A stretch of DNA of 64,000 nt from Paenibacillus algicola (GTDB taxonomy: Bacteria > Bacillota > Bacilli > Paenibacillales > Paenibacillaceae): assembly GCF_005577435.1 (NCBI RefSeq), contig NZ_CP040396.1, forward strand, positions 3,290,501-3,354,500, read 5' to 3'. Within the stretch, counting starts at the first letter, position 1, and each line of letters begins with the position of its first letter. Made by a program: the position numbers and the translations under genes. A model generated the notes under the pieces. The model was not told where the DNA came from. It made no database searches and was given only the letters and a program-made list of their open reading frames with translations. This document shows, piece after piece, positions 1 through 54,971 of the stretch.

Positions 1-1135
1 GCGGGTGCCAGCCGAAAATTCGCAGATTGTTTATGTTAGCTTCCTTCACCTGAGTCAGAAGATGCTCATATTTGCTCGTGCTGTTTCGGCCGTAGAAAAA
101 GGACGGCTGTCCACCCCAGCATGCAGAGCGCAGAAACTGACGTTTTCCATTAATTACAAAGGTCCATGGGTATTCACATTCCTCATCCGTGAAGCCCGGG
201 TTCTTCTCCATTTCAAGGGTCCGAATCCCGATTACATCCTCTACCCGATCCAGCACCGTGCCGTTACTCAGCACCTTCATTTCCAGATGATACAGATTCG
301 GCGTTCCCATGTCCCAAGGCCACCACAGCTTCGCGTCTGAAACGTCCACAACGGCATTGGCCATCTGAGTGCCGGCGGGAACCTCTACCTCCACCGTCTG
401 AGTGATGGTGTCTGAATCAAAGTTGTGGCCTTTCATTGCAACCTCGATCTGAACCGTTTGAGACTCTGCCGTCATATTGTCCAGTTCAATCTGCAAATGA
501 ACAGCAGCGCCTCCTTCTTTCAGCTCCGACTCACTGCGATAGTTCACGATGCGTACATGGTCTGTTGCAATCAGGCGTACCGGACGCCAGATCCCGAAGG
601 GCACCAGGCCCGTAAAATAATCACCGGAGAAATTCACTTTCTTGCCGCCCACGTTGCGGAAATTCTTAGGAGGCGGGTCCAGCTTGACAGCGAGCTGATT
701 CGAGCCGCCCGACCAATGATCAAAATTCAGAAACTCACTGACCTCGAAAGAAAATGGGGAGAACATACCCTCATGACTTCCCAGCAGCTGACCATTCAGC
801 CACACGGTGCAGCTATAATCAACGCCTTCGAACTCCAGGTGAATCTTCTTCCCCTTCATTTCCGGAGAAACGTTGAAGCTGCGAATATACCACCATTCAT
901 ATTCCTGTACCCATTTCGCTTTATGCATATTGCGCCCATAATAGGGATCTTCCAATTCACCTGCACGCTGAAGATCGGTATACACATCCCCAGGAACGCT
1001 CGCATAATTCCAGCTGAAGATGACGCCTTGACGTTCCGCAGGCAGGATATGAAATCCTTCCCGCTCTCCTTCACCAACTCTCATTTTTTCCATTTGCCAC
1101 AGCTTGCCGCTTAAATCCTTTACGATTCGAGACAT
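1..1135 (-). CDS. Glycoside hydrolase family 2 protein, beta-mannosidase-like (N-terminal part)
   Basis: The frame runs off the left edge, so only the first 378 residues are visible. They carry the N-terminal sugar-binding beta-sandwich of GH2 enzymes (WLNGQLLGSHEG at 112-123, FGIWRPVRL at 180-188) and the immunoglobulin-like domain with the LWWPWDMGTPNLY segment at 270-282 that is typical of beta-mannosidases. The catalytic barrel and its two glutamates lie outside the window. There is no signal peptide, so the enzyme should act on imported oligosaccharides in the cytoplasm. The ATG at 1135 is chosen because a GGAGGT ribosome site lies just upstream. Specificity between mannoside, galactoside and glucuronide cannot be settled from this part. 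Confidence 0.85.
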   Translation of the reverse strand, partial: MSRIVKDLSGKLWQMEKMRVGEGEREGFHILPAERQGVIFSWNYASVPGDVYTDLQRAGELEDPYYGRNMHKAKWVQEYEWWYIRSFNVSPEMKGKKIHLEFEGVDYSCTVWLNGQLLGSHEGMFSPFSFEVSEFLNFDHWSGGSNQLAVKLDPPPKNFRNVGGKKVNFSGDYFTGLVPFGIWRPVRLIATDHVRIVNYRSESELKEGGAAVHLQIELDNMTAESQTVQIEVAMKGHNFDSDTITQTVEVEVPAGTQMANAVVDVSDAKLWWPWDMGTPNLYHLEMKVLSNGTVLDRVEDVIGIRTLEMEKNPGFTDEECEYPWTFVINGKRQFLRSACWGGQPSFFYGRNSTSKYEHLLTQVKEANINNLRIFGWHP

Positions 1136-46859: not shown

Positions 46860-49229
46860 TTATTTCAGCTCTGCAATCGTCACGCCGGTACCGCCTTCGC
46901 CGTAATTGCCAAGCCGGTAGCTCTTGACATGACGGTGTCTCCGCAAATATTCCTGAATACCGGTGCGCAGTATGCCCGTCCCTTTGCCGTGGATAATGTA
47001 CACCTGTCCGAGATTGCCAAGAAACGCCTCGTCAATAAAGCGGTCTACGGCGATTAACGCCTCTTCCAGGTTCTCGCCCCGCAAATCCAGCTCACTTCGG
47101 GTATTGGCGTCCCGGGTACGCTTGAGGACGGTTGCTGTTTTTTGCGGCTTGGCGGCCTCTTTGCCGTTTCCGCTGGACACCAGCTCCAGATCACTTAAAG
47201 CGACCTTCATCTTCATAATCCCCAGCTGAACCAGAGCTTCCTTGCTCCCTGCCATTTCCACAACATGGCCTTTTTGATTCAGGCTGTATACCATAACTTC
47301 ATCCCCGGCGCTGATGGCCCGCTTCTCATTCGCGCTTCGCTTCGCCGCCGATTTCTTCTTCTGCTCCGGTTCTGCCTCATCCAGCCTCTTGCGGGCGGCG
47401 ATCAGCTTATGCTCCTTCACAGAGGCGCCTTCCTCCTGCGCCAGCTTCCGCAGATCCGCGATAATCTCCTCTGCCTCGCTGCGTGCTTTGTCCACCAGGC
47501 TGCGGGCTTCCTGCCGCGCCTTGTCCACCAGCTTGTCACGCTGCTCTTCCAGCCTCTCCAGCTCGCGGCTGTGCCGCGCCCGAAGCTCCTCCAGCTCTTG
47601 ACGCACCGCCTGAGCCTGCTCCCGCTCTACCTCGGCTCCGTGACGGTTCTCTTCCAGCGATGCAATCATATGCTCGATACGCTGATCCTCTTCCTTCACT
47701 TCTCCGCGGGCGAACTCCAGAATGTGCAGGGGCAGTCCCAGGCGCTCGGCAATCGCAAACGCGTTGCTTCGGCCCGGTACGCCGACAAGGAGCCGGTATG
47801 TCGGACTCAGCGTCTGAACATCAAACTCCATGCTGGCATTGATCAGCCCTTTGCGCTCATAGGCATAAGCCTTTAGCTCGGAATAGTGAGTTGTTGCAAT
47901 CATGCGGCAGCCCTTTTGATGAATGTGCTCCAGAATGGCAATCGCAAGCGCGGAGCCCTCAGCAGGGTCCGTGCCGGCACCGACCTCATCCAGCAGCACC
48001 AGACTCTTCTCTGTCATCCGGCCAAGAATAGAAATAATGTTTGTCATATGGCTGGAAAAAGTACTCAAGCTCTGCTCAATGCTCTGCTCATCGCCGATAT
48101 CCGCATAAATGGCATCGAAGACGCACATGCTGCTTCCTTCCTGCGCCGGGATGAACAGCCCGGACATGGCCATCAGGCTGAGGAGACCGACGGTTTTGAG
48201 CGTTACCGTCTTACCGCCCGTATTAGGACCTGTCACAATAATTGAGGTAAAATCATTGCCCAGCTCCGCTTCCAGCGGCACGACCTGCTCTGCAGGAATG
48301 AGCGGATGGCGACCCTTTTTAATTTTTAGATATCCTCTGTCGTTCATCACGGGCAGGGTGGATTTACTCACATGAGCCAGGCGCGCTTTAGCAAAAATAA
48401 AATCCAGCTGGCCGCATACATCGACATCATAAGCAAGCAGCTCGACCTGTTCTCCGACAAGCGCAGTCAGCTTCTGCAGAATGATCTCAATCTCGCGCTC
48501 TTCCTTCATTCGCGTTTCGCGGAGCTTGTTGTTCATCATGACAATGGACTCCGGCTCAATGAACAGTGTCGCTCCCGAGCCTGACTGATCGTGCACGATC
48601 CCGCCGAAATACGAGCGGTACTCCGCCTTGACCGGAATGACGAACCGGTCTCCCCGAATGGTGATGAGCTGATCCTGCAGCATTTTGGCGACGGTCTGGG
48701 AACGGATCATGCCTTCGAGCTTCTCCCGAATCCGCGCCTCACCGCCCCGCAGCTCCCGGCGAATCTTGGCAAGCTCTGCACTTGCCGTATCCACCACCTC
48801 TGCGCTGTCATCAATGCACAGCCGGATGCTGTCCTCAAGCGGCTTCTGCTCCGAAATGAAATCACTCAGCTGATACAGCCGTTCAATCTTCTCATCCTCA
48901 TGAATCTGCGCGATCAAACGCTTCAGCCGCCGGGAGCCAAGAATGGTATTGGCTATTGCGAGCAGCTCATGCGCATTGAGCGTACCGCCGATCGCCGCTC
49001 GTTTGAGAGGCTCGTTTATGTTACTAATTCCCCGGAAGGAGGGCGTTCCCTTCAAGCGATCCACCGTGTACGCTTCATCGGTGATTGACAGCAGGCGGAT
49101 CACGTCATCCAGCATCACACTGGGCCGCAGCTGCTCACAGGCCTCCTTGCCCATCGTAGTCTGGGTATATCCTGCCAATGTATTTAAAATTTTACGGTAT
49201 TCAAGTGTGTGTAGAATCTTTTCGTCCAA
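46860..49229 (-). CDS. mutS2: MutS2 (endonuclease MutS2 / ribosome rescue ATPase RqcU)
   Basis: A 789-residue ATPase of the MutS family without the mismatch-binding domain. Core and clamp helices fill the first half. The ATPase has the Walker A IVTGPNTGGKTVTLKTVG, the signature SLSTFSSHMTNI and Walker B VLLDEVGAGTDPAEG. A long coiled coil and a C-terminal Smr domain follow (SELDLRGENLEEAL, IIHGKGTGILRTGI). In Bacillus the protein splits collided ribosomes; elsewhere it has been linked to suppression of recombination. The TTG at 49229 is chosen because GAGAGGAG precedes it by nine bases and MDEKILHTLEYRKI is the usual start of the family. Confidence 0.95.
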   Translation of the reverse strand: MDEKILHTLEYRKILNTLAGYTQTTMGKEACEQLRPSVMLDDVIRLLSITDEAYTVDRLKGTPSFRGISNINEPLKRAAIGGTLNAHELLAIANTILGSRRLKRLIAQIHEDEKIERLYQLSDFISEQKPLEDSIRLCIDDSAEVVDTASAELAKIRRELRGGEARIREKLEGMIRSQTVAKMLQDQLITIRGDRFVIPVKAEYRSYFGGIVHDQSGSGATLFIEPESIVMMNNKLRETRMKEEREIEIILQKLTALVGEQVELLAYDVDVCGQLDFIFAKARLAHVSKSTLPVMNDRGYLKIKKGRHPLIPAEQVVPLEAELGNDFTSIIVTGPNTGGKTVTLKTVGLLSLMAMSGLFIPAQEGSSMCVFDAIYADIGDEQSIEQSLSTFSSHMTNIISILGRMTEKSLVLLDEVGAGTDPAEGSALAIAILEHIHQKGCRMIATTHYSELKAYAYERKGLINASMEFDVQTLSPTYRLLVGVPGRSNAFAIAERLGLPLHILEFARGEVKEEDQRIEHMIASLEENRHGAEVEREQAQAVRQELEELRARHSRELERLEEQRDKLVDKARQEARSLVDKARSEAEEIIADLRKLAQEEGASVKEHKLIAARKRLDEAEPEQKKKSAAKRSANEKRAISAGDEVMVYSLNQKGHVVEMAGSKEALVQLGIMKMKVALSDLELVSSGNGKEAAKPQKTATVLKRTRDANTRSELDLRGENLEEALIAVDRFIDEAFLGNLGQVYIIHGKGTGILRTGIQEYLRRHRHVKSYRLGNYGEGGTGVTIAELK

Positions 49230-49412
49230 GAAGCACAACTCCTCTCATGCATGACCTTATTATAACGAAGTGCTCCGTGTTTCGCTATTTCTAAACCTCT
49301 AAACTCTTGTTCACCAATTCTACATAATGAACATGAAGCATTGTCCCGCATTTTACGTTATCATAAACAAAGATACGGTTTTACATTATTTATGGTAAGG
49401 GGAGAGCTATTC

Positions 49413-49796
49413 ATGAAAAAAGCCTTAATGTCTCTGTTATCCCTCATGCTTCTGTTCGTGCTTGCAGCATGCGGTGGAAATAATGACGCGTCCTCCGGGG
49501 GAGCAGTTACCGATCCCGCAGTTGCGCCTGAAGCGGAGCTGGTCATCTCGGCAACAAACTATGAGTTCAATCAGCAGGAGTATACGCTGAAGAAGGGCGT
49601 TCCGGTTGAAATCAAGTATGAAAATAAGGAAGGAAATCATGGCATTATGATCCCGGCACTTGGTGTGCAGCTGGATCGCAACAAGGATTCGATCGTGGTG
49701 ACCCCGGACAAGACTGGCACCTTCGACATTTCCTGCTCGATCATGTGCGGAACAGGACATTCACAGATGATCTCCAAGCTTATTATTGAAGAATAA
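49413..49796 (+). CDS. Stand-alone CuA-type cupredoxin lipoprotein
   Basis: A 127-residue lipoprotein with signal peptide and lipobox ending at Cys20 (LMLLFVLAACGG). The mature domain is a small beta-barrel with the CuA ligands of cytochrome oxidase subunit II: His76 (NHGIMI), then Cys108, Cys112, His116 and Met119 in SCSIMCGTGHSQM. It lacks the membrane hairpin of true subunit II and no oxidase genes are nearby. It may carry electrons or hand copper to an oxidase or a nitrous-oxide-type reductase. AAGGGGAG precedes the ATG. It lies alone between two minus-strand genes. Confidence 0.82.
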   Translation: MKKALMSLLSLMLLFVLAACGGNNDASSGGAVTDPAVAPEAELVISATNYEFNQQEYTLKKGVPVEIKYENKEGNHGIMIPALGVQLDRNKDSIVVTPDKTGTFDISCSIMCGTGHSQMISKLIIEE

Positions 49797-49800
49797 ACAA

Positions 49801-49857
49801 GACAACAACCTCCGGCATGTTCGATGGCGATCCATCGAAAGCCGGAGGTTGTTGTTT
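49801..49857. terminator. Bidirectional terminator
   Basis: ACAACAACCTCCGGC pairs with GCCGGAGGTTGTTGT, with an inner hairpin between. It serves the convergent CuA and zapA-type genes. Confidence 0.75.
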
Positions 49858-49858
49858 G

Positions 49859-52273
49859 TCAGCTCTGATCTTGCTCAATCAGCTCAATCCACTCATTATA
49901 TTCTACCTGCAGCTTAGCATATTCATCCTGAAGCTTCTGATGCTCCTCTTCCAGCTGGGCTGCATGTCCGGACTGCATTTCCTGCTGCGTCTGAAGCAGC
50001 CGGTATTGATGGGAAATAATCTCATACTGTTCCCCTAATTCCGACAGCTGACGGGATATATCCTGTTTCTCCTGCAGCAGCTGATCCTGGCTCTGCTCGG
50101 ACGCTGCAATCTGCTCCTGCCAGGATTTCAGCTCTGCCTTCCATGCGGCTTCCTGCTGCTCCCATTGATCCTTAAAGCGTGATAAGGAGTCCGCCTCCGA
50201 CTGCCATTCCTCTAGCTCCGCCTCCACCTGCTTCAGGCGGTCTGTCAGGCTGCTCTCCTTGGCTTCCTGCTCGGCGGAACGTCTGCGCAGCTGCTCCAAC
50301 TGCACGGATGCTTCATGATATTCTTCCTCCAGCATTCCATACAGCTTGCGGGTCTCTTCTTCCTGACGATACGCTTCGGCTCTTCCTTGCTCAGCCTTCT
50401 CCAGCTGCAGCTGCAGCTCTTTGCGCTCCTGCTCCGCCGTCTGGCGGCGGGAGCTCTGAAGACGTGCTTCCTCCTTCAGACCCTCAGCCTCTTCACGCAG
50501 CACGGCCAGCTCCCGATCCTGCCCTTCAGCAGCCTCCAGTGCCTGTACAAGCTGAAGCTCCAGATGATCCTTCTCGCCCTGACGCTCTTCCGCCAAGGAC
50601 TTCCAGGTCGAGCATTCATTCACAGTCTGCTCCAGATCCTCATGCAGCTTGCGGGAATGCTCATTCGCATCGACCACCAGGCGCTGCAGCCGCCGCCGCT
50701 CCTCTTCCGAAGCAGCAGCCTGGCTCTTCAGGCCATCGCGTTCTTGAATCAGCTTCTCGGCCTGGGTCTTTGCAGTCTCCAGCTGCTGCTTGAAGGCTTG
50801 GTGCTCCCCGGTTACGGTCTCCAGCTTCTTCCGAGCCTGCTCCAGCTGGTTCTTCAGCGATGATTCCTGCTGCTTCAAGACGGCCAGCTCCTGATCCCGG
50901 CTGGCAGCCTGCTTATGCAGAGCTGCTGCTGCCTCCTGCTGGGAGGCAAGCCTTGTTTCCAGCTCCTTCACGGCGGACTGGTGTCGCGATTCCTGCTGGG
51001 AAGAAGACTGCTTGTACTTCTCTTCCATTTCCCGAACACTCTGAGTATGGCGGCTTTCGGCCTCTCTTAACGCCTTGGAATGGCTGTATTCCAGCTGGCT
51101 TGCAGCCTCGGTATGCTGCTCTGTCAGCTGCTTCACTGCCTGCTCCCGGCTTTGCTCCAGCTCCTCCACCTGCAGTGCATGCTGAAGCTCCAGCTCTTCG
51201 AGGGCCTCCTGGCGCTCCCGCTTCAGCTCCTCTTCGGTGGCTCGATGTCCCTGCTGCAAGCCTTCCACCTCGTCCCGATGCTGCTGCTCCAAAGCCTCCA
51301 CCTTCGCCTGGTGCTGCTGCTTCAGCTCTTCTATGGCTGCCTGATGGCGGCTCTCCAGCTGCTGCACAAGCTCCTGCTGCTGGGTCTCCAGCTGCTCGGC
51401 CAGCTCCAGATATTCGCGCTGCAAGGACTCCACTTCTTCCGCATGCTTCTGCTTCATCTGCTCCACGGACTGCACCGCCGCAGCAAGCTCCTGCTGCAGC
51501 TGCTCCAGGAGCTGCTGCTGATCCTGGGTAAGCTTGTCCATATCGCCCTTGTACTTCTGCTCCAGCTCCTGCAGCTTGCGCTTGTAGCTCTGCTCCGACT
51601 GCTCGGCAGACTGCTTATGGCTCTTCTGCAGCGCCTGCAGCTGTCCTTCCTGCTGGGCCTTCCATTCTTCCTGCGCCTGCTTATATTTCTTCTCCCACTC
51701 CTGGGTTTTGTTTCTCAGCTGATCCTGCAGCTGCTGCTTCTCCTTGGAAAGCTCGGCAGAACGCCCGCTCTCCTTCTCCAGCAGCTCCTTGCTGCGCTTG
51801 GCATCTGCAGTAAGGCTCTCCTTGGCTGCTTGAAGCTCGGTTACGAGCCCCGTCTTCTCCTTCAGCTGCTGTTCCAGGCTGCTCTTCGTCTCCTTCAGCT
51901 GCTGCTCTAAGCTGCCCTTCGTTTCTTTCAGCTGCTGCTCCAGGCCACCCTTCATCTGCTCAAATCGCTGCTGCTGCTCAGAGAGCAGGCCCTGCACCCG
52001 GGCGAGCTCGGAACGGAGCTCGCTGCGCTCAGACGTAAGCAGCTTGACCTCCTGCTGAAACTGCTGCAGCTGCACAGCCTCTTCAGCCATATGTACGGCA
52101 GCCAGGACCGCGATCCGCGGCGTGTCGAGGCGGGAATGATTCTTGGATATAGAGCGCATACGCTCATCTACATAATTGGCAACCTGCTTCATGTATTCAC
52201 TGCTGCTGCCGACAAGCTTATAGGAAGTGCCGTAGATTTCTACGGTCACGCGATTACGGTCCGGTGTAGTCAC
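49859..52273 (-). CDS. zapA: ZapA domain fused to a very long coiled coil
   Basis: An 804-residue protein. Residues 8-75 are a ZapA domain (RVTVEIYGTSYKLVGSSSEY, RLDTPRIAVLAAVHMAEEAV), the FtsZ-ring-associated module that normally is the whole protein of about 85-100 residues. From about 70 to 795 the sequence is an uninterrupted coiled coil rich in Gln, Glu, Leu and Lys, with heptad stretches such as LEQQLKETKSSLEQQLKETK. The start is GTG 52273 behind AAGGAGGG. The gene follows pheT, the usual place of zapA in Bacillus, so this is the resident zapA enlarged. A structural role at the division septum is likely. Confidence 0.85.
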   Translation of the reverse strand: MTTPDRNRVTVEIYGTSYKLVGSSSEYMKQVANYVDERMRSISKNHSRLDTPRIAVLAAVHMAEEAVQLQQFQQEVKLLTSERSELRSELARVQGLLSEQQQRFEQMKGGLEQQLKETKGSLEQQLKETKSSLEQQLKEKTGLVTELQAAKESLTADAKRSKELLEKESGRSAELSKEKQQLQDQLRNKTQEWEKKYKQAQEEWKAQQEGQLQALQKSHKQSAEQSEQSYKRKLQELEQKYKGDMDKLTQDQQQLLEQLQQELAAAVQSVEQMKQKHAEEVESLQREYLELAEQLETQQQELVQQLESRHQAAIEELKQQHQAKVEALEQQHRDEVEGLQQGHRATEEELKRERQEALEELELQHALQVEELEQSREQAVKQLTEQHTEAASQLEYSHSKALREAESRHTQSVREMEEKYKQSSSQQESRHQSAVKELETRLASQQEAAAALHKQAASRDQELAVLKQQESSLKNQLEQARKKLETVTGEHQAFKQQLETAKTQAEKLIQERDGLKSQAAASEEERRRLQRLVVDANEHSRKLHEDLEQTVNECSTWKSLAEERQGEKDHLELQLVQALEAAEGQDRELAVLREEAEGLKEEARLQSSRRQTAEQERKELQLQLEKAEQGRAEAYRQEEETRKLYGMLEEEYHEASVQLEQLRRRSAEQEAKESSLTDRLKQVEAELEEWQSEADSLSRFKDQWEQQEAAWKAELKSWQEQIAASEQSQDQLLQEKQDISRQLSELGEQYEIISHQYRLLQTQQEMQSGHAAQLEEEHQKLQDEYAKLQVEYNEWIELIEQDQS

Positions 52274-52469
52274 AGTTGTGCCCTCCTTGTATGGTCTGTG
52301 GATTCTAGGATGTCTTCACGGCCTTGCCGGGTCTTCACTATGCTATATATATGATTATATAGGAGATGCCTGCCCATGAGAAATTCCTGCCCGGAAAAGA
52401 GCCGCCTATCCAGTCATGTATAGGTTCGTGAATGCTCATATTCACGCAAACGGGAAACCTTAGGATGCC

Positions 52470-52520: not shown

Positions 52521-54971
52521 CTATTTTCTTAATTCCGCTCCAAAAGATTGCTCCAGTGCCGCAACCGCTGTCTCGACAGCGCTGCTAACCTCTTCATCAG
52601 TCAGCGTACGCTCCTGATGGCGGAAGCTTAGGGAGATAGCGATGCTTTTCTTGCCTTCGCCAAGCTTGCTGCCCTTAAACACGTCAAACACCCGGACGCG
52701 CTGCAGCAAATCACCGGCATGCTTCTGCACCGTCTCGATCAGCGCGGCTGCCTCCACCTGCTCATCCACCACAATCGCCAGATCCCGCTCCATTCCCGGA
52801 TATCTTGGCAAATCACGATAGACGACCGTACTGTTGACAAGCTCATACAGCGGAGCAAGCAGCAGCTCGGCCACATACGTGTCCTCCAGATCCTTATCCT
52901 GCTGCAGCTGAGGATGGAGCTGACCCAGTGTGCCCAGCTTGACCTCTCCCAGCGGTGTATCCGCATAGAGTGTAGCTGAACGTCCCGGATGATAATCAGC
53001 CGGCTCATCCGCTTTATATTTCACCTGATCTGCAGTCACTCCCAAATAATGAAGGATAGACTCTACCGCTCCCTTGAGATCGAAGAAATCCACAGGCTGC
53101 GGCTGAACATTCCATTGCTTCATCCCTTGGCGTCCTGTCAGCAGCAGCGCCAGCGCTGGCTGCTCCTCCGGCTGGCGGGTCAGCTGGTCCTCTTCGGTGT
53201 GGAACAGATTGCCCAGCTCAAACAGCGCCAGGTCCGGCTGCTTGCGGTTCATATTATAGACGGCCATATCCAGCAGCTGCGGGAGCAGGCTTGTGCGCAG
53301 TACGCTGCGGTCTTCGCTCATCGGCATGGACAGCGGAACCGCTTTGCGGCCGGGAACCAGCGAGTGGAAGGTCTTCGCCTGCTGAGGGTCGATGAAGGAG
53401 TAGCCCAGCACCTCCTGCCAGCCGCCATGCGTCAGGAAGCGGCGCAGCGCGCGGCGCACCATCTGCGGCTTGGTCAGGGAGCCCGGTGTGGTCTCGCCCT
53501 CAATCGCGCTCGTCGGAATGTTATCATACCCGTACAATCTTGCAATTTCTTCGATCAGATCCACATCCAGCGTAATATCTCCGCGGCGGGTCGGCACCTC
53601 CACCTCGATGTGATCTTCGCCGGCATCGCCGAATGGAAAGTGCAGGCGGCTGAACAAGGTTTTGACCTCCAGCAGCGACAGCGCCGTACCAAGGAGCTTG
53701 TTCACTTTAGACAAGGACAGCGTAATCGTCGTCTTCTCAGTCACATCACTGCCGGCCTGGACAACGCCTTGATGGACAGCTCCTCCGGCGTACTCCGCCA
53801 TCAGGGCTGCGGCGCGGTTCAAGGCAGGAATCACGGCAGCCGGATCCACTTCCTTCTCAAAGCGGGAGCTGGCTTCCGATCGTAGCCCCAGCTGTCTTGA
53901 TGTCTTGCGCACTGTACCGCCATCGAAACGGGCAGACTCCAGCATAATATTTACGGTCTGATCTGTAACCTCGGAATGAAGTCCACCCATCACGCCTGCA
54001 AGCGCAGCAGGACCATTCTCACCCGCAATGACGAGCATATGAGGCTCCAGCTTGCGTTCCTGTCCATCCAGTGTAACCATGCTCTCGCCTTCACGGGCCA
54101 GGCGCACCGTAACCCCTCCGCCCGGCAGACGGTCGGCGTCAAACGCGTGCAGCGGCTGACCGTACTCCAGCATGACATAATTCGTAATATCGACGATGTT
54201 GTTAATAGGGCGGATGCCGGCAGCCATGAGACGGTTCTGCATCCACAGCGGTGATGTGCCGACGGTTACGCCGGTAATGTAGCGCGCACTGTAATGAGGG
54301 CACTGCTCTTCGGCCTCAATGGCTACAGAAATATGCTCTGCCGCCGCTCTGCTCACCTCGACAAGCTGCTCCTGTGGATCAGGCAGCGCCAGCTCGCGGC
54401 CCAGAATAGCACTCACCTCGTACGCGGTGCCGAGCATGCTGAGGCAGTCTGAACGGTTGGGCGTAAGATCGAGCTCCAGCACCTGATCATTCAAGCCCAG
54501 TACGTCTTCAATCGGCAAGCCGATGGCAGTCTGCTCCGGCAGCACCAGAATGCCCTCCTGCAGTTCTTTCGGGAGCAGCTTGTCGTTCATGCCCAGCTCT
54601 TTGGCGGAGCAGATCATTCCTTGGGACACAACACCGCGGAGCTTCGCTTTTTTAATATCCAGTCCGCCGGGAAGCTTCGCCCCCACCAGAGCAACCGGCA
54701 CCTTCTGACCGGCATCTACATTTTTCGCACCGCATACAATCTGAATATCCTCATCCAGTCCGGCATCCACGATACATACGTTCAGCTTATCGGCATCCGG
54801 GTGCTTCTCTTTGCTTTTGACATAGCCGGTAACGACCTTGTGAATCCCCTGATTCCGGTTCTCGATGACATCAATTTCGATGCCAGCCGCTGTAATACGC
54901 CGGGCAAGCTCGGGCGCGGTTACCTCGCTCAGGGAAATATATTGGGACAACCATTCGGTTGATACTCTCAT
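52521..54971 (-). CDS. pheT: Phenylalanyl-tRNA synthetase beta subunit
   Basis: An 816-residue subunit. It has the N-terminal tRNA-binding fold (VVTGYVKSKEKHPDADKLNV), the B3/B4 editing region (DLTPNRSDCLSMLG), the B5 domain and the C-terminal anticodon-binding ferredoxin-like domain (RDLPRYPGMERDLAIVVDE). Together with PheS it forms the alpha2-beta2 enzyme that charges tRNA-Phe and hydrolyses mischarged tyrosine. It lies 28 bases after pheS, behind the same T-box leader, and ends at a terminator. Length is normal. Confidence 0.97.
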   Translation of the reverse strand: MRVSTEWLSQYISLSEVTAPELARRITAAGIEIDVIENRNQGIHKVVTGYVKSKEKHPDADKLNVCIVDAGLDEDIQIVCGAKNVDAGQKVPVALVGAKLPGGLDIKKAKLRGVVSQGMICSAKELGMNDKLLPKELQEGILVLPEQTAIGLPIEDVLGLNDQVLELDLTPNRSDCLSMLGTAYEVSAILGRELALPDPQEQLVEVSRAAAEHISVAIEAEEQCPHYSARYITGVTVGTSPLWMQNRLMAAGIRPINNIVDITNYVMLEYGQPLHAFDADRLPGGGVTVRLAREGESMVTLDGQERKLEPHMLVIAGENGPAALAGVMGGLHSEVTDQTVNIMLESARFDGGTVRKTSRQLGLRSEASSRFEKEVDPAAVIPALNRAAALMAEYAGGAVHQGVVQAGSDVTEKTTITLSLSKVNKLLGTALSLLEVKTLFSRLHFPFGDAGEDHIEVEVPTRRGDITLDVDLIEEIARLYGYDNIPTSAIEGETTPGSLTKPQMVRRALRRFLTHGGWQEVLGYSFIDPQQAKTFHSLVPGRKAVPLSMPMSEDRSVLRTSLLPQLLDMAVYNMNRKQPDLALFELGNLFHTEEDQLTRQPEEQPALALLLTGRQGMKQWNVQPQPVDFFDLKGAVESILHYLGVTADQVKYKADEPADYHPGRSATLYADTPLGEVKLGTLGQLHPQLQQDKDLEDTYVAELLLAPLYELVNSTVVYRDLPRYPGMERDLAIVVDEQVEAAALIETVQKHAGDLLQRVRVFDVFKGSKLGEGKKSIAISLSFRHQERTLTDEEVSSAVETAVAALEQSFGAELRK

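What the first reader, a model, noticed from the sequence alone, without database searches (positions are those of the whole stretch)
49859..52273. ZapA fused to about 700 residues of coiled coil
ZapA is normally a protein of about 85-100 residues that bundles FtsZ. Here, in the conserved place after pheT, one open frame of 804 codons joins a recognisable ZapA domain to a continuous coiled coil rich in Gln and Glu. A rod of this size could span roughly 100 nm from the Z ring and act as a scaffold, filling roles of EzrA- or SepF-like proteins. The frame is intact across 2.4 kb, so it is maintained by selection.
Basis: partly seen in the sequence, partly recalled or inferred. Interest (0 to 1): 0.7.

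Follow-up and report, generated by a model that had tools for sequence, protein, structure and literature searches.

The report
ZapA stretched by an internal rod
In one order of bacteria the small cell-division protein ZapA, usually about 100 residues, carries a coiled-coil rod of very variable length that appears to be inserted between its head and its own original tail end, a natural series that could show what the span of a division-ring crosslinker does.

Summary
In detail: 49859-52273 (-) is one intact 804-codon frame with a ZapA head (PF05164), after pheT, the only zapA of the genome. It is no local oddity: 99 of 100 genomes of the genus have a ZapA match, 98 in frames of 355-1289 aa (the 355 one is frameshifted). 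Intact proteins of the order run from 138 to 1892 aa; ZapA frames listed outside the order are 81-219 aa. The rod is not simply appended. The far C-terminus, LQxEYxKLQxEYNEWIELIE, is present in 141 of 146 distinct complete proteins; the other five encode it in another frame. It matches the native C-terminus of short ZapA in both directions of search. So the rod was probably inserted inside ZapA's own tail helix. Length differences between close relatives mostly keep helix phase. Most likely mechanism (inferred): heads bind FtsZ and tail ends join as in the ZapA tetramer, giving a crosslinker of roughly 100-200 nm span. EzrA was not found in this genome, SepF was, and other Bacilli without EzrA keep short ZapA, so EzrA/SepF replacement is weak. 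My searches found no paper on it.

The parts
49859..52273 (-). zapA, 804 codons plus TGA, GTG start
52281..52288 (-). ribosome-binding site (AAGGAGGG on the minus strand)
   Evidence: read
51998..52273 (-). ZapA head and start of its tail helix, residues 1-92
   Evidence: Pfam PF05164 res 9-92; PDB 2mmv res 1-76; on this side invariant columns only up to residue 63
49934..51997 (-). inserted coiled-coil rod, residues 93-780; length-variable among relatives
50954..51853 (-). 11-residue-repeat (hendecad) part of the rod, about residues 141-440
   Evidence: period 3.63-3.67; 33-bp tandem units at 51251-51321 and, mostly just before this part, at 51849-51957
49934..50953 (-). 7-residue-repeat (heptad) part of the rod, about residues 441-780
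   Evidence: period about 3.5 in most windows (window 561-680 shows no clear period)
49862..49933 (-). conserved C-terminal cap, residues 781-804, matching the native C-terminus of short ZapA
49802..49855. 15-bp inverted repeat (49802-49816 / 49841-49855) right after zapA and the convergent gene; possibly a shared terminator (read by eye; the scan did not list it)
   Evidence: read
52521..54971 (-). pheT, upstream neighbour
   Evidence: the name is the finding's and mine by recall, no family scan was run on it; its C-terminus was the query
46860..49238 (-). mutS2, downstream on the same strand
   Evidence: MutS_V, MSSS and Smr domains

Best explanation
It is the only ZapA of this Paenibacillus genome, a true ZapA whose C-terminal tail helix was opened by insertion of a coiled-coil rod, the original end of the helix staying at the far tip (supported by sequence). 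The insertion lies at or before the base of the order; afterwards the rod grew and shrank many times, mostly in units that keep coiled-coil phase (lengths shown, process inferred). The product would be a bipolar crosslinker whose two FtsZ-binding ends are about 200 nm apart if only the caps overlap, or about 100 nm if the rods overlap fully, far more than in ordinary ZapA. It would hold FtsZ filaments or filament clusters at long range rather than pack them into tight ladders.
For: Head: Pfam 56.7 bits, PDB ZapA 2mmv. Single zapA, after pheT. Long form order-wide. Cap: best site for a 17-position profile of short-ZapA C-termini in 140 of 141 long proteins; own cap 26.4 bits, next best site 3.1. 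Reverse test: a profile of 13 long-ZapA tips run over 200 whole Bacilli genomes hits 25: 17 of the own family and 8 of the other 183; 5 of those 8 hits fall on the C-terminal end of that genome's short zapA (against coordinates). Nothing else in the own genome comes near (77.4 bits, next 14.2). Invariant columns among 21 aligned proteins lie only at residues 1-63 and 781-800. Identity to the own protein, medians over 143: head 73, rod 33, tip 70 %. Length differences of close pairs: 361 of 381 are 0, 3 or 4 modulo 7 (3/7 expected, no gap placement involved). Order and short-ZapA Bacilli are parted by one branch of a pheT tree, SH-aLRT 92. Tail helices form the tetramer bundle of ZapA, and tetramerisation is needed in E. 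coli (PMC12216130, PMC12754632: passages; PMC7246612: abstract).
Against: Nothing here shows FtsZ binding, oligomer state or location. The cap homology rests on 17-22 residues; 175 of the 183 genomes outside the family gave no tip match at E 0.01, and 3 of the 8 matches outside are not on zapA. The short-ZapA profile came from the 30 best Pfam matches (24 distinct ends), not from a random draw. One cap scores only rank 3 (L198). NCBIfam's ZapA model is hit below its cut-off (56.7 against 80). A protein search with the last 80 residues found nothing at E 0.01. In-phase length change would also follow from recombination between repeats. AlphaFold2 was run on one chain only and is weak.
Confidence: 0.5

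Rival explanations
1. The rod is a tether: head on FtsZ, cap on another partner about 100 nm away (membrane, nucleoid or another divisome protein), so one chain does what ZapA plus the coiled-coil ZapB do in E. coli.
For: Head and cap conserved, rod variable, as expected for a tether. ZapA in E. coli is linked to the chromosome through ZapB and MatP (PMC7246612, abstract).
Against: The cap matches the end of short ZapA in bacteria without such a rod, so it is probably older than the rod and more likely keeps the old job. No ZapB match in the rod (Pfam scan at E 0.01).
Confidence: 0.22
2. Rod length is close to neutral: repeats of 7 and 11 residues expand and contract, the head does the work, and the cell tolerates any length.
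For: Lengths 138-1892 aa with sharp changes between relatives (1310 in L227 and 251 in L228 within one starred clade of five); repeat arrays with 147- and 189-bp units; rod identity low; recombination between repeats alone would give the in-phase length steps.
Against: 141 of 146 distinct proteins still end in the cap and the rest encode it in another frame; 129 of 151 rods have no Pro (duplicates and broken frames included); the shortest intact protein in hand is 138 aa, longer than the 80-107 aa ZapAs.
Confidence: 0.18
3. Substitute for EzrA: a long Z-ring scaffold where EzrA is missing.
For: No EzrA in this genome, all 22 candidates scored. In the order 14 of 119 genomes pass the cut-off, with at most 71.9 bits, whereas 63 of 111 genomes of the class sample score 117-664 bits; the best one in the order carries a TPM domain (L146).
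Against: No listed genome of families f16, f17 and f27 passes the cut-off either, and their ZapAs are short. In one search only 10 candidates per genome were scored, and diverged EzrA cannot be excluded in some members of the order (L147 and L149 match only EzrA in Pfam, 69.4 and 61 bits). The N-terminus is the ZapA head; no membrane anchor is seen by eye (no predictor was run).
Confidence: 0.07
4. Artefact: two genes joined by a sequencing error.
For: Five of 146 distinct proteins are broken by a frameshift or stop, so errors or breaks do occur in these repeats.
Against: Long frames in 98 of 99 genus genomes with a match and in many other assemblies.
Confidence: 0.01

Closest known systems
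ZapA (Pfam PF05164; PDB 2mmv, 1w2e/1t3u)
   Same: Head domain, C-terminal end of the tail helix, single copy, place after pheT
   Different: A rod inserted between head and cap, about 50 to 1800 residues in the order, about 690 here
3hnw, 'uncharacterized protein' of 138 residues with a ZapA-like head (21.4 bits)
   Same: ZapA-like head followed by more chain
   Different: Far shorter; its end was not compared with the cap
ZapB working with ZapA in E. coli
   Same: Coiled-coil protein recruited by ZapA to the Z ring (literature)
   Different: Separate gene; no ZapB match here
EzrA
   Same: Long helical protein of the Z ring (literature)
   Different: No match of this protein to PF06160 at E 0.01
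SMC coiled coils
   Same: Generic coiled-coil match, 37 bits
   Different: Far under the cut-off of 567 bits; the best stretch is residues 485-792 only

Membership tests
ZapA | Pfam PF05164 over gathering score | tested here: met
   56.7 against 23.8 bits, residues 9-92
ZapA | NCBIfam NF010724 equivalog cut-off | tested here: not met
   56.7 against 80 bits; profile positions 4-77 of 87 matched, as expected if the last part of the profile lies some 700 residues further on
ZapA | native C-terminal end of the tail helix | tested here: met
   found at the far tip, 26.4 bits; reverse search
ZapA | gene place after pheT, single copy | tested here: met
ZapA | dimer head binds FtsZ; tetramer | not testable with these tools
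   needs protein
ZapA | length about 85-110 residues (usual, not defining) | tested here: not met
   804 residues
EzrA | PF06160 match | tested here: not met
   no PF06160 match at E 0.01
EzrA | N-terminal membrane anchor | not tested
   no predictor was run; by eye the N-terminus is the ZapA head
SepF | PF04472 match | tested here: not met
   no match; the genome has a separate SepF
SMC | over the NCBIfam SMC cut-off | tested here: not met
   37 against 567 bits
ZapB | Pfam ZapB match in the rod | tested here: not met
   one search lists only ZapA and a sub-threshold apolipoprotein match

The most novel reading that the evidence does not exclude
An entire bacterial order builds its Z ring with a bipolar, rod-spaced ZapA whose span is an evolvable quantity: cap-to-cap tetramers put FtsZ-binding heads up to hundreds of nm apart, setting ring width or linking FtsZ clusters, so that the series of natural lengths (138-1892 aa) is a ready-made ruler experiment on Z-ring architecture.
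Probability: 0.38. Interest if true: 0.82.

Novelty: new variant of a known kind. Interest (0 to 1): 0.6.

Why it matters
ZapA is usually described as a short crosslinker that packs FtsZ filaments closely. An order in which the same head and, it seems, the same tail end are held apart by a rod that changes length more than tenfold would make it possible to ask directly whether crosslinker span sets the width, density or condensation of the Z ring. It also shows a clean evolutionary route: growth inside a coiled coil, mostly in phase-keeping units, with the functional end carried outward.

Tried and rejected
A two-gene fusion or frame error was rejected by the relatives. A plain appended coil was rejected by the cap result. 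A fused ZapB, SMC or EzrA domain was rejected by family scans. A protein search with the last 80 residues found nothing at E 0.01 (20 candidates only), which I take as low sensitivity, since the genome search with a tip profile worked. The first homolog search gave 14 proteins of 497-799 aa; 8 carry a source's own name, 7 of them a Paenibacillus; the eighth, P0009, is named as a fungal contig and has other Pfam domains (PheT-type by recall), which I take for bacterial contamination. Gap lengths from alignment (400 of 553 candidate pairs aligned, 75 kept at 80% identity or more) can be biased by the aligner, so I repeated the test on length differences alone (three proteins without the anchor pattern, L134, L215 and L227, dropped); the span modulo 7 over all proteins together is not peaked (same call), only differences between close relatives are, and the pairs are not independent. 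Fully antiparallel rods seem less likely, because the last 120 residues are heptad in 108 of 119 proteins of 450 aa or more (shuffled control 16 of 119), while the first 120 of the rod are heptad in 17, hendecad in 27 and neither in 75; this is a weak argument. dN/dS in the rod is 0.15 and 0.18 for the two relatives of four where it could be computed, near saturation. A promoter-like site at 52382-52354 (-) is no more than shuffles give. The count of 11 length-class changes held one from a broken gene; without the two broken rows it is 10.

Full report
What is there. The frame 49859-52273 (-) is 804 codons, GTG start, good ribosome site, TGA stop. Pfam finds ZapA at residues 9-92 with 56.7 bits; the closest solved chain by sequence is the ZapA 2mmv. 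It is the only ZapA match at E 1 in the 4.48-Mb single-contig genome. It follows pheT; mutS2 lies further down on the same strand, with a convergent gene scoring weakly as a cupredoxin (20.6 bits, cut-off 27) between them.

How widespread. In the genus, 99 of 100 genomes have a match; frames (stop to stop) run from 355 to 1289 aa in 98 of them, and one has an internal stop. The 355 one is itself frameshifted (L181); the next shortest is 512. Family: 244 of 245 genomes have a match; order: 239 of 246; the longest frames listed are 1616 and 1892 aa (only the best matches are listed, and a few are cut by contig ends). Class: 291 of 299; the listed matches are all outside the order and have frames of 81-219 aa. 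Of 205 zapA loci of the order in hand, 151 hold the whole gene, 146 of them distinct in protein; the other 54 are cut by the end of the stretch. Proteins that end in the cap run from 138 (L134) to 1892 aa (L233). On a tree of the neighbouring pheT (quick method, LG+G4), 73 rows of the order and 23 short-ZapA Bacilli are parted by one branch (SH-aLRT 92); without two broken genes, length classes (under 130, 130-299, 300 and more) need 10 changes.

The tip. 141 of the 146 end in a segment of the type LQxEYxKLQxEYNEWIELIE (counted as Y/F/H-N-E/D-W within the last 40 residues). The five that do not have it in another frame downstream: L011 (also L012), L026, L052 (also L181), L078 and L188. L052 comes from P. 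macquariensis ATCC 23464; another database record of P. macquariensis is a 621-residue ZapA (P0005). Short ZapAs of other Bacilli often end in the type ADEYFKLRQEYEELIKLLE. A 17-position profile of 24 distinct ends of this kind picks the far tip as the best site in 140 of 141 long proteins; median tip score 26.4 bits (lowest 4.6, L198) against a median of 4.0 for the best site in each rod (highest 13.1). In reverse, a 40-position profile of 13 long-ZapA tips was run over 200 whole Bacilli genomes: 25 are hit at E 0.01, 17 of the own family and 8 of the other 183. Five of those 8 (G500, G514, G535, G559, G624) fall on the end of the short zapA gene; three (G605, G614, G616) lie in other frames. 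The genomes without a match that are listed begin outside the order; 155 are not listed. The own genome has no second copy of the tip (77.4 bits, next best 14.2). The simplest reading is that the coil was inserted within ZapA's tail helix and that the old end was carried outward. A 219-residue stop-to-stop frame in another family (L243), with several RRERDEL heptads before a DELFLLLDE-type end, looks like a small, independent case.

The rod. Own rod: no Pro, Gln/Glu/Leu-rich; hydrophobic period 3.63-3.67 over about residues 141-440 (11-residue repeats, for example LESRHQAAIEE LKQQHQAKVEA LEQQHRDEVEG) and about 3.5 over most of the rest, one window (561-680) being unclear. Among 119 distinct proteins of 450 aa or more, the last 120 residues are heptad in 108 (16 after shuffling); the first 120 of the rod are hendecad in 27, heptad in 17 and neither in 75. 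Identity to the own protein over 143 relatives (duplicates kept): head 73, rod 33, tip 70 % (medians). Among 21 aligned proteins the invariant columns are at residues 1-63 and 781-800 only. Forty distinct gaps in 75 close pairs: 34 have lengths of 0 or 4 modulo 7; without any alignment gaps, 361 of 381 close-pair length differences, and 50 of 58 distinct values, are 0, 3 or 4 modulo 7, where 3/7 would be expected (pairs are not independent). L183 has arrays of 147 and 189 bp, that is 49 and 63 residues. Growth is therefore mostly in units that keep the coil in phase; recombination between repeats alone would give this too, so it is not by itself proof of selection.

Function. Literature seen as passages: the ZapA tetramer is held by a bundle of four C-terminal helices and links FtsZ filaments (PMC12216130); it is an antiparallel dumbbell, tetramerisation is needed, and the condensed Z ring is about 80-100 nm wide (PMC12754632); from the abstract of PMC7246612, the dimer-only I83E mutant fails to complement and does not recruit ZapB. 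If the cap keeps that job, the long protein is a stretched dumbbell: about 700 residues at about 0.15 nm per residue (textbook value, recalled) is about 105 nm per arm. Shown by sequence: head, cap, rod, conservation. Inferred: FtsZ binding, cap-cap joining, span.

EzrA and SepF. Own genome: no EzrA over the cut-off (best 19.1 bits, a chemoreceptor by Pfam), SepF present. Order: 14 of 119 genomes pass the EzrA cut-off, with at most 71.9 bits (10 candidates scored per genome). Class: 70 of 111 pass; 63 of these have a best match of 117-664 bits, and the other 7 (46.9-92.8 bits) include one of the own family. Diverged EzrA in some members of the order is not excluded. No listed genome of families f16, f17 and f27 passes the cut-off, and ZapA there is short. 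So EzrA is missing here, but that does not explain the rod.

In print. Searches of the open-access library for ZapA with Paenibacillus (15 papers; titles and abstract starts seen), with coiled-coil, FtsZ and Bacillus (51, 25 listed), with Paenibacillaceae (11), with length, Firmicutes, divisome and phylogen (12), with hendecad (1), with 3HNW (0), of EzrA with Paenibacillus (5) and of FtsZ and Z-ring with Paenibacillus (6) showed no account of a long ZapA in the listings. Most subscription papers are not in that library. Several of these proteins are already named ZapA in databases, so the members are catalogued; the architecture seems undescribed.

Noticed in passing
L183:2473-3729: The zapA rod of G064 holds tandem arrays of 147-bp and 189-bp units (49 and 63 residues); species with the same kind of head have ZapA lengths 674, 723, 772 and 821, steps of exactly 49, among other lengths.
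   Followed up: partly
L243: A ZapA in another Bacilli family (219-residue stop-to-stop frame) with several RDELRRE-type heptads before a DELFLLLDE end: perhaps an independent small insertion of the same kind.
   Followed up: no
L146:1000-3711 (-): A 904-residue frame in a genome of the own family joins a TPM domain to an EzrA-like coil; frames of 568 and 702 residues in L147 and L149 match EzrA alone in Pfam. L148 (554 residues) resembles L147 and was not scanned by Pfam.
   Followed up: partly
49344-49796 (+): Convergent lipoprotein-like gene with a weak cupredoxin match (20.6 bits, cut-off 27) between zapA and mutS2, where PolX and a colicin V-type protein often lie in Bacilli (PMC9226535, passage).
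   Followed up: partly
L011/L012, L026, L052/L181, L078, L188: zapA broken by frameshift or stop in some assemblies, with the cap encoded downstream in another frame; sequencing error in repeats or real variation not decided.
   Followed up: partly
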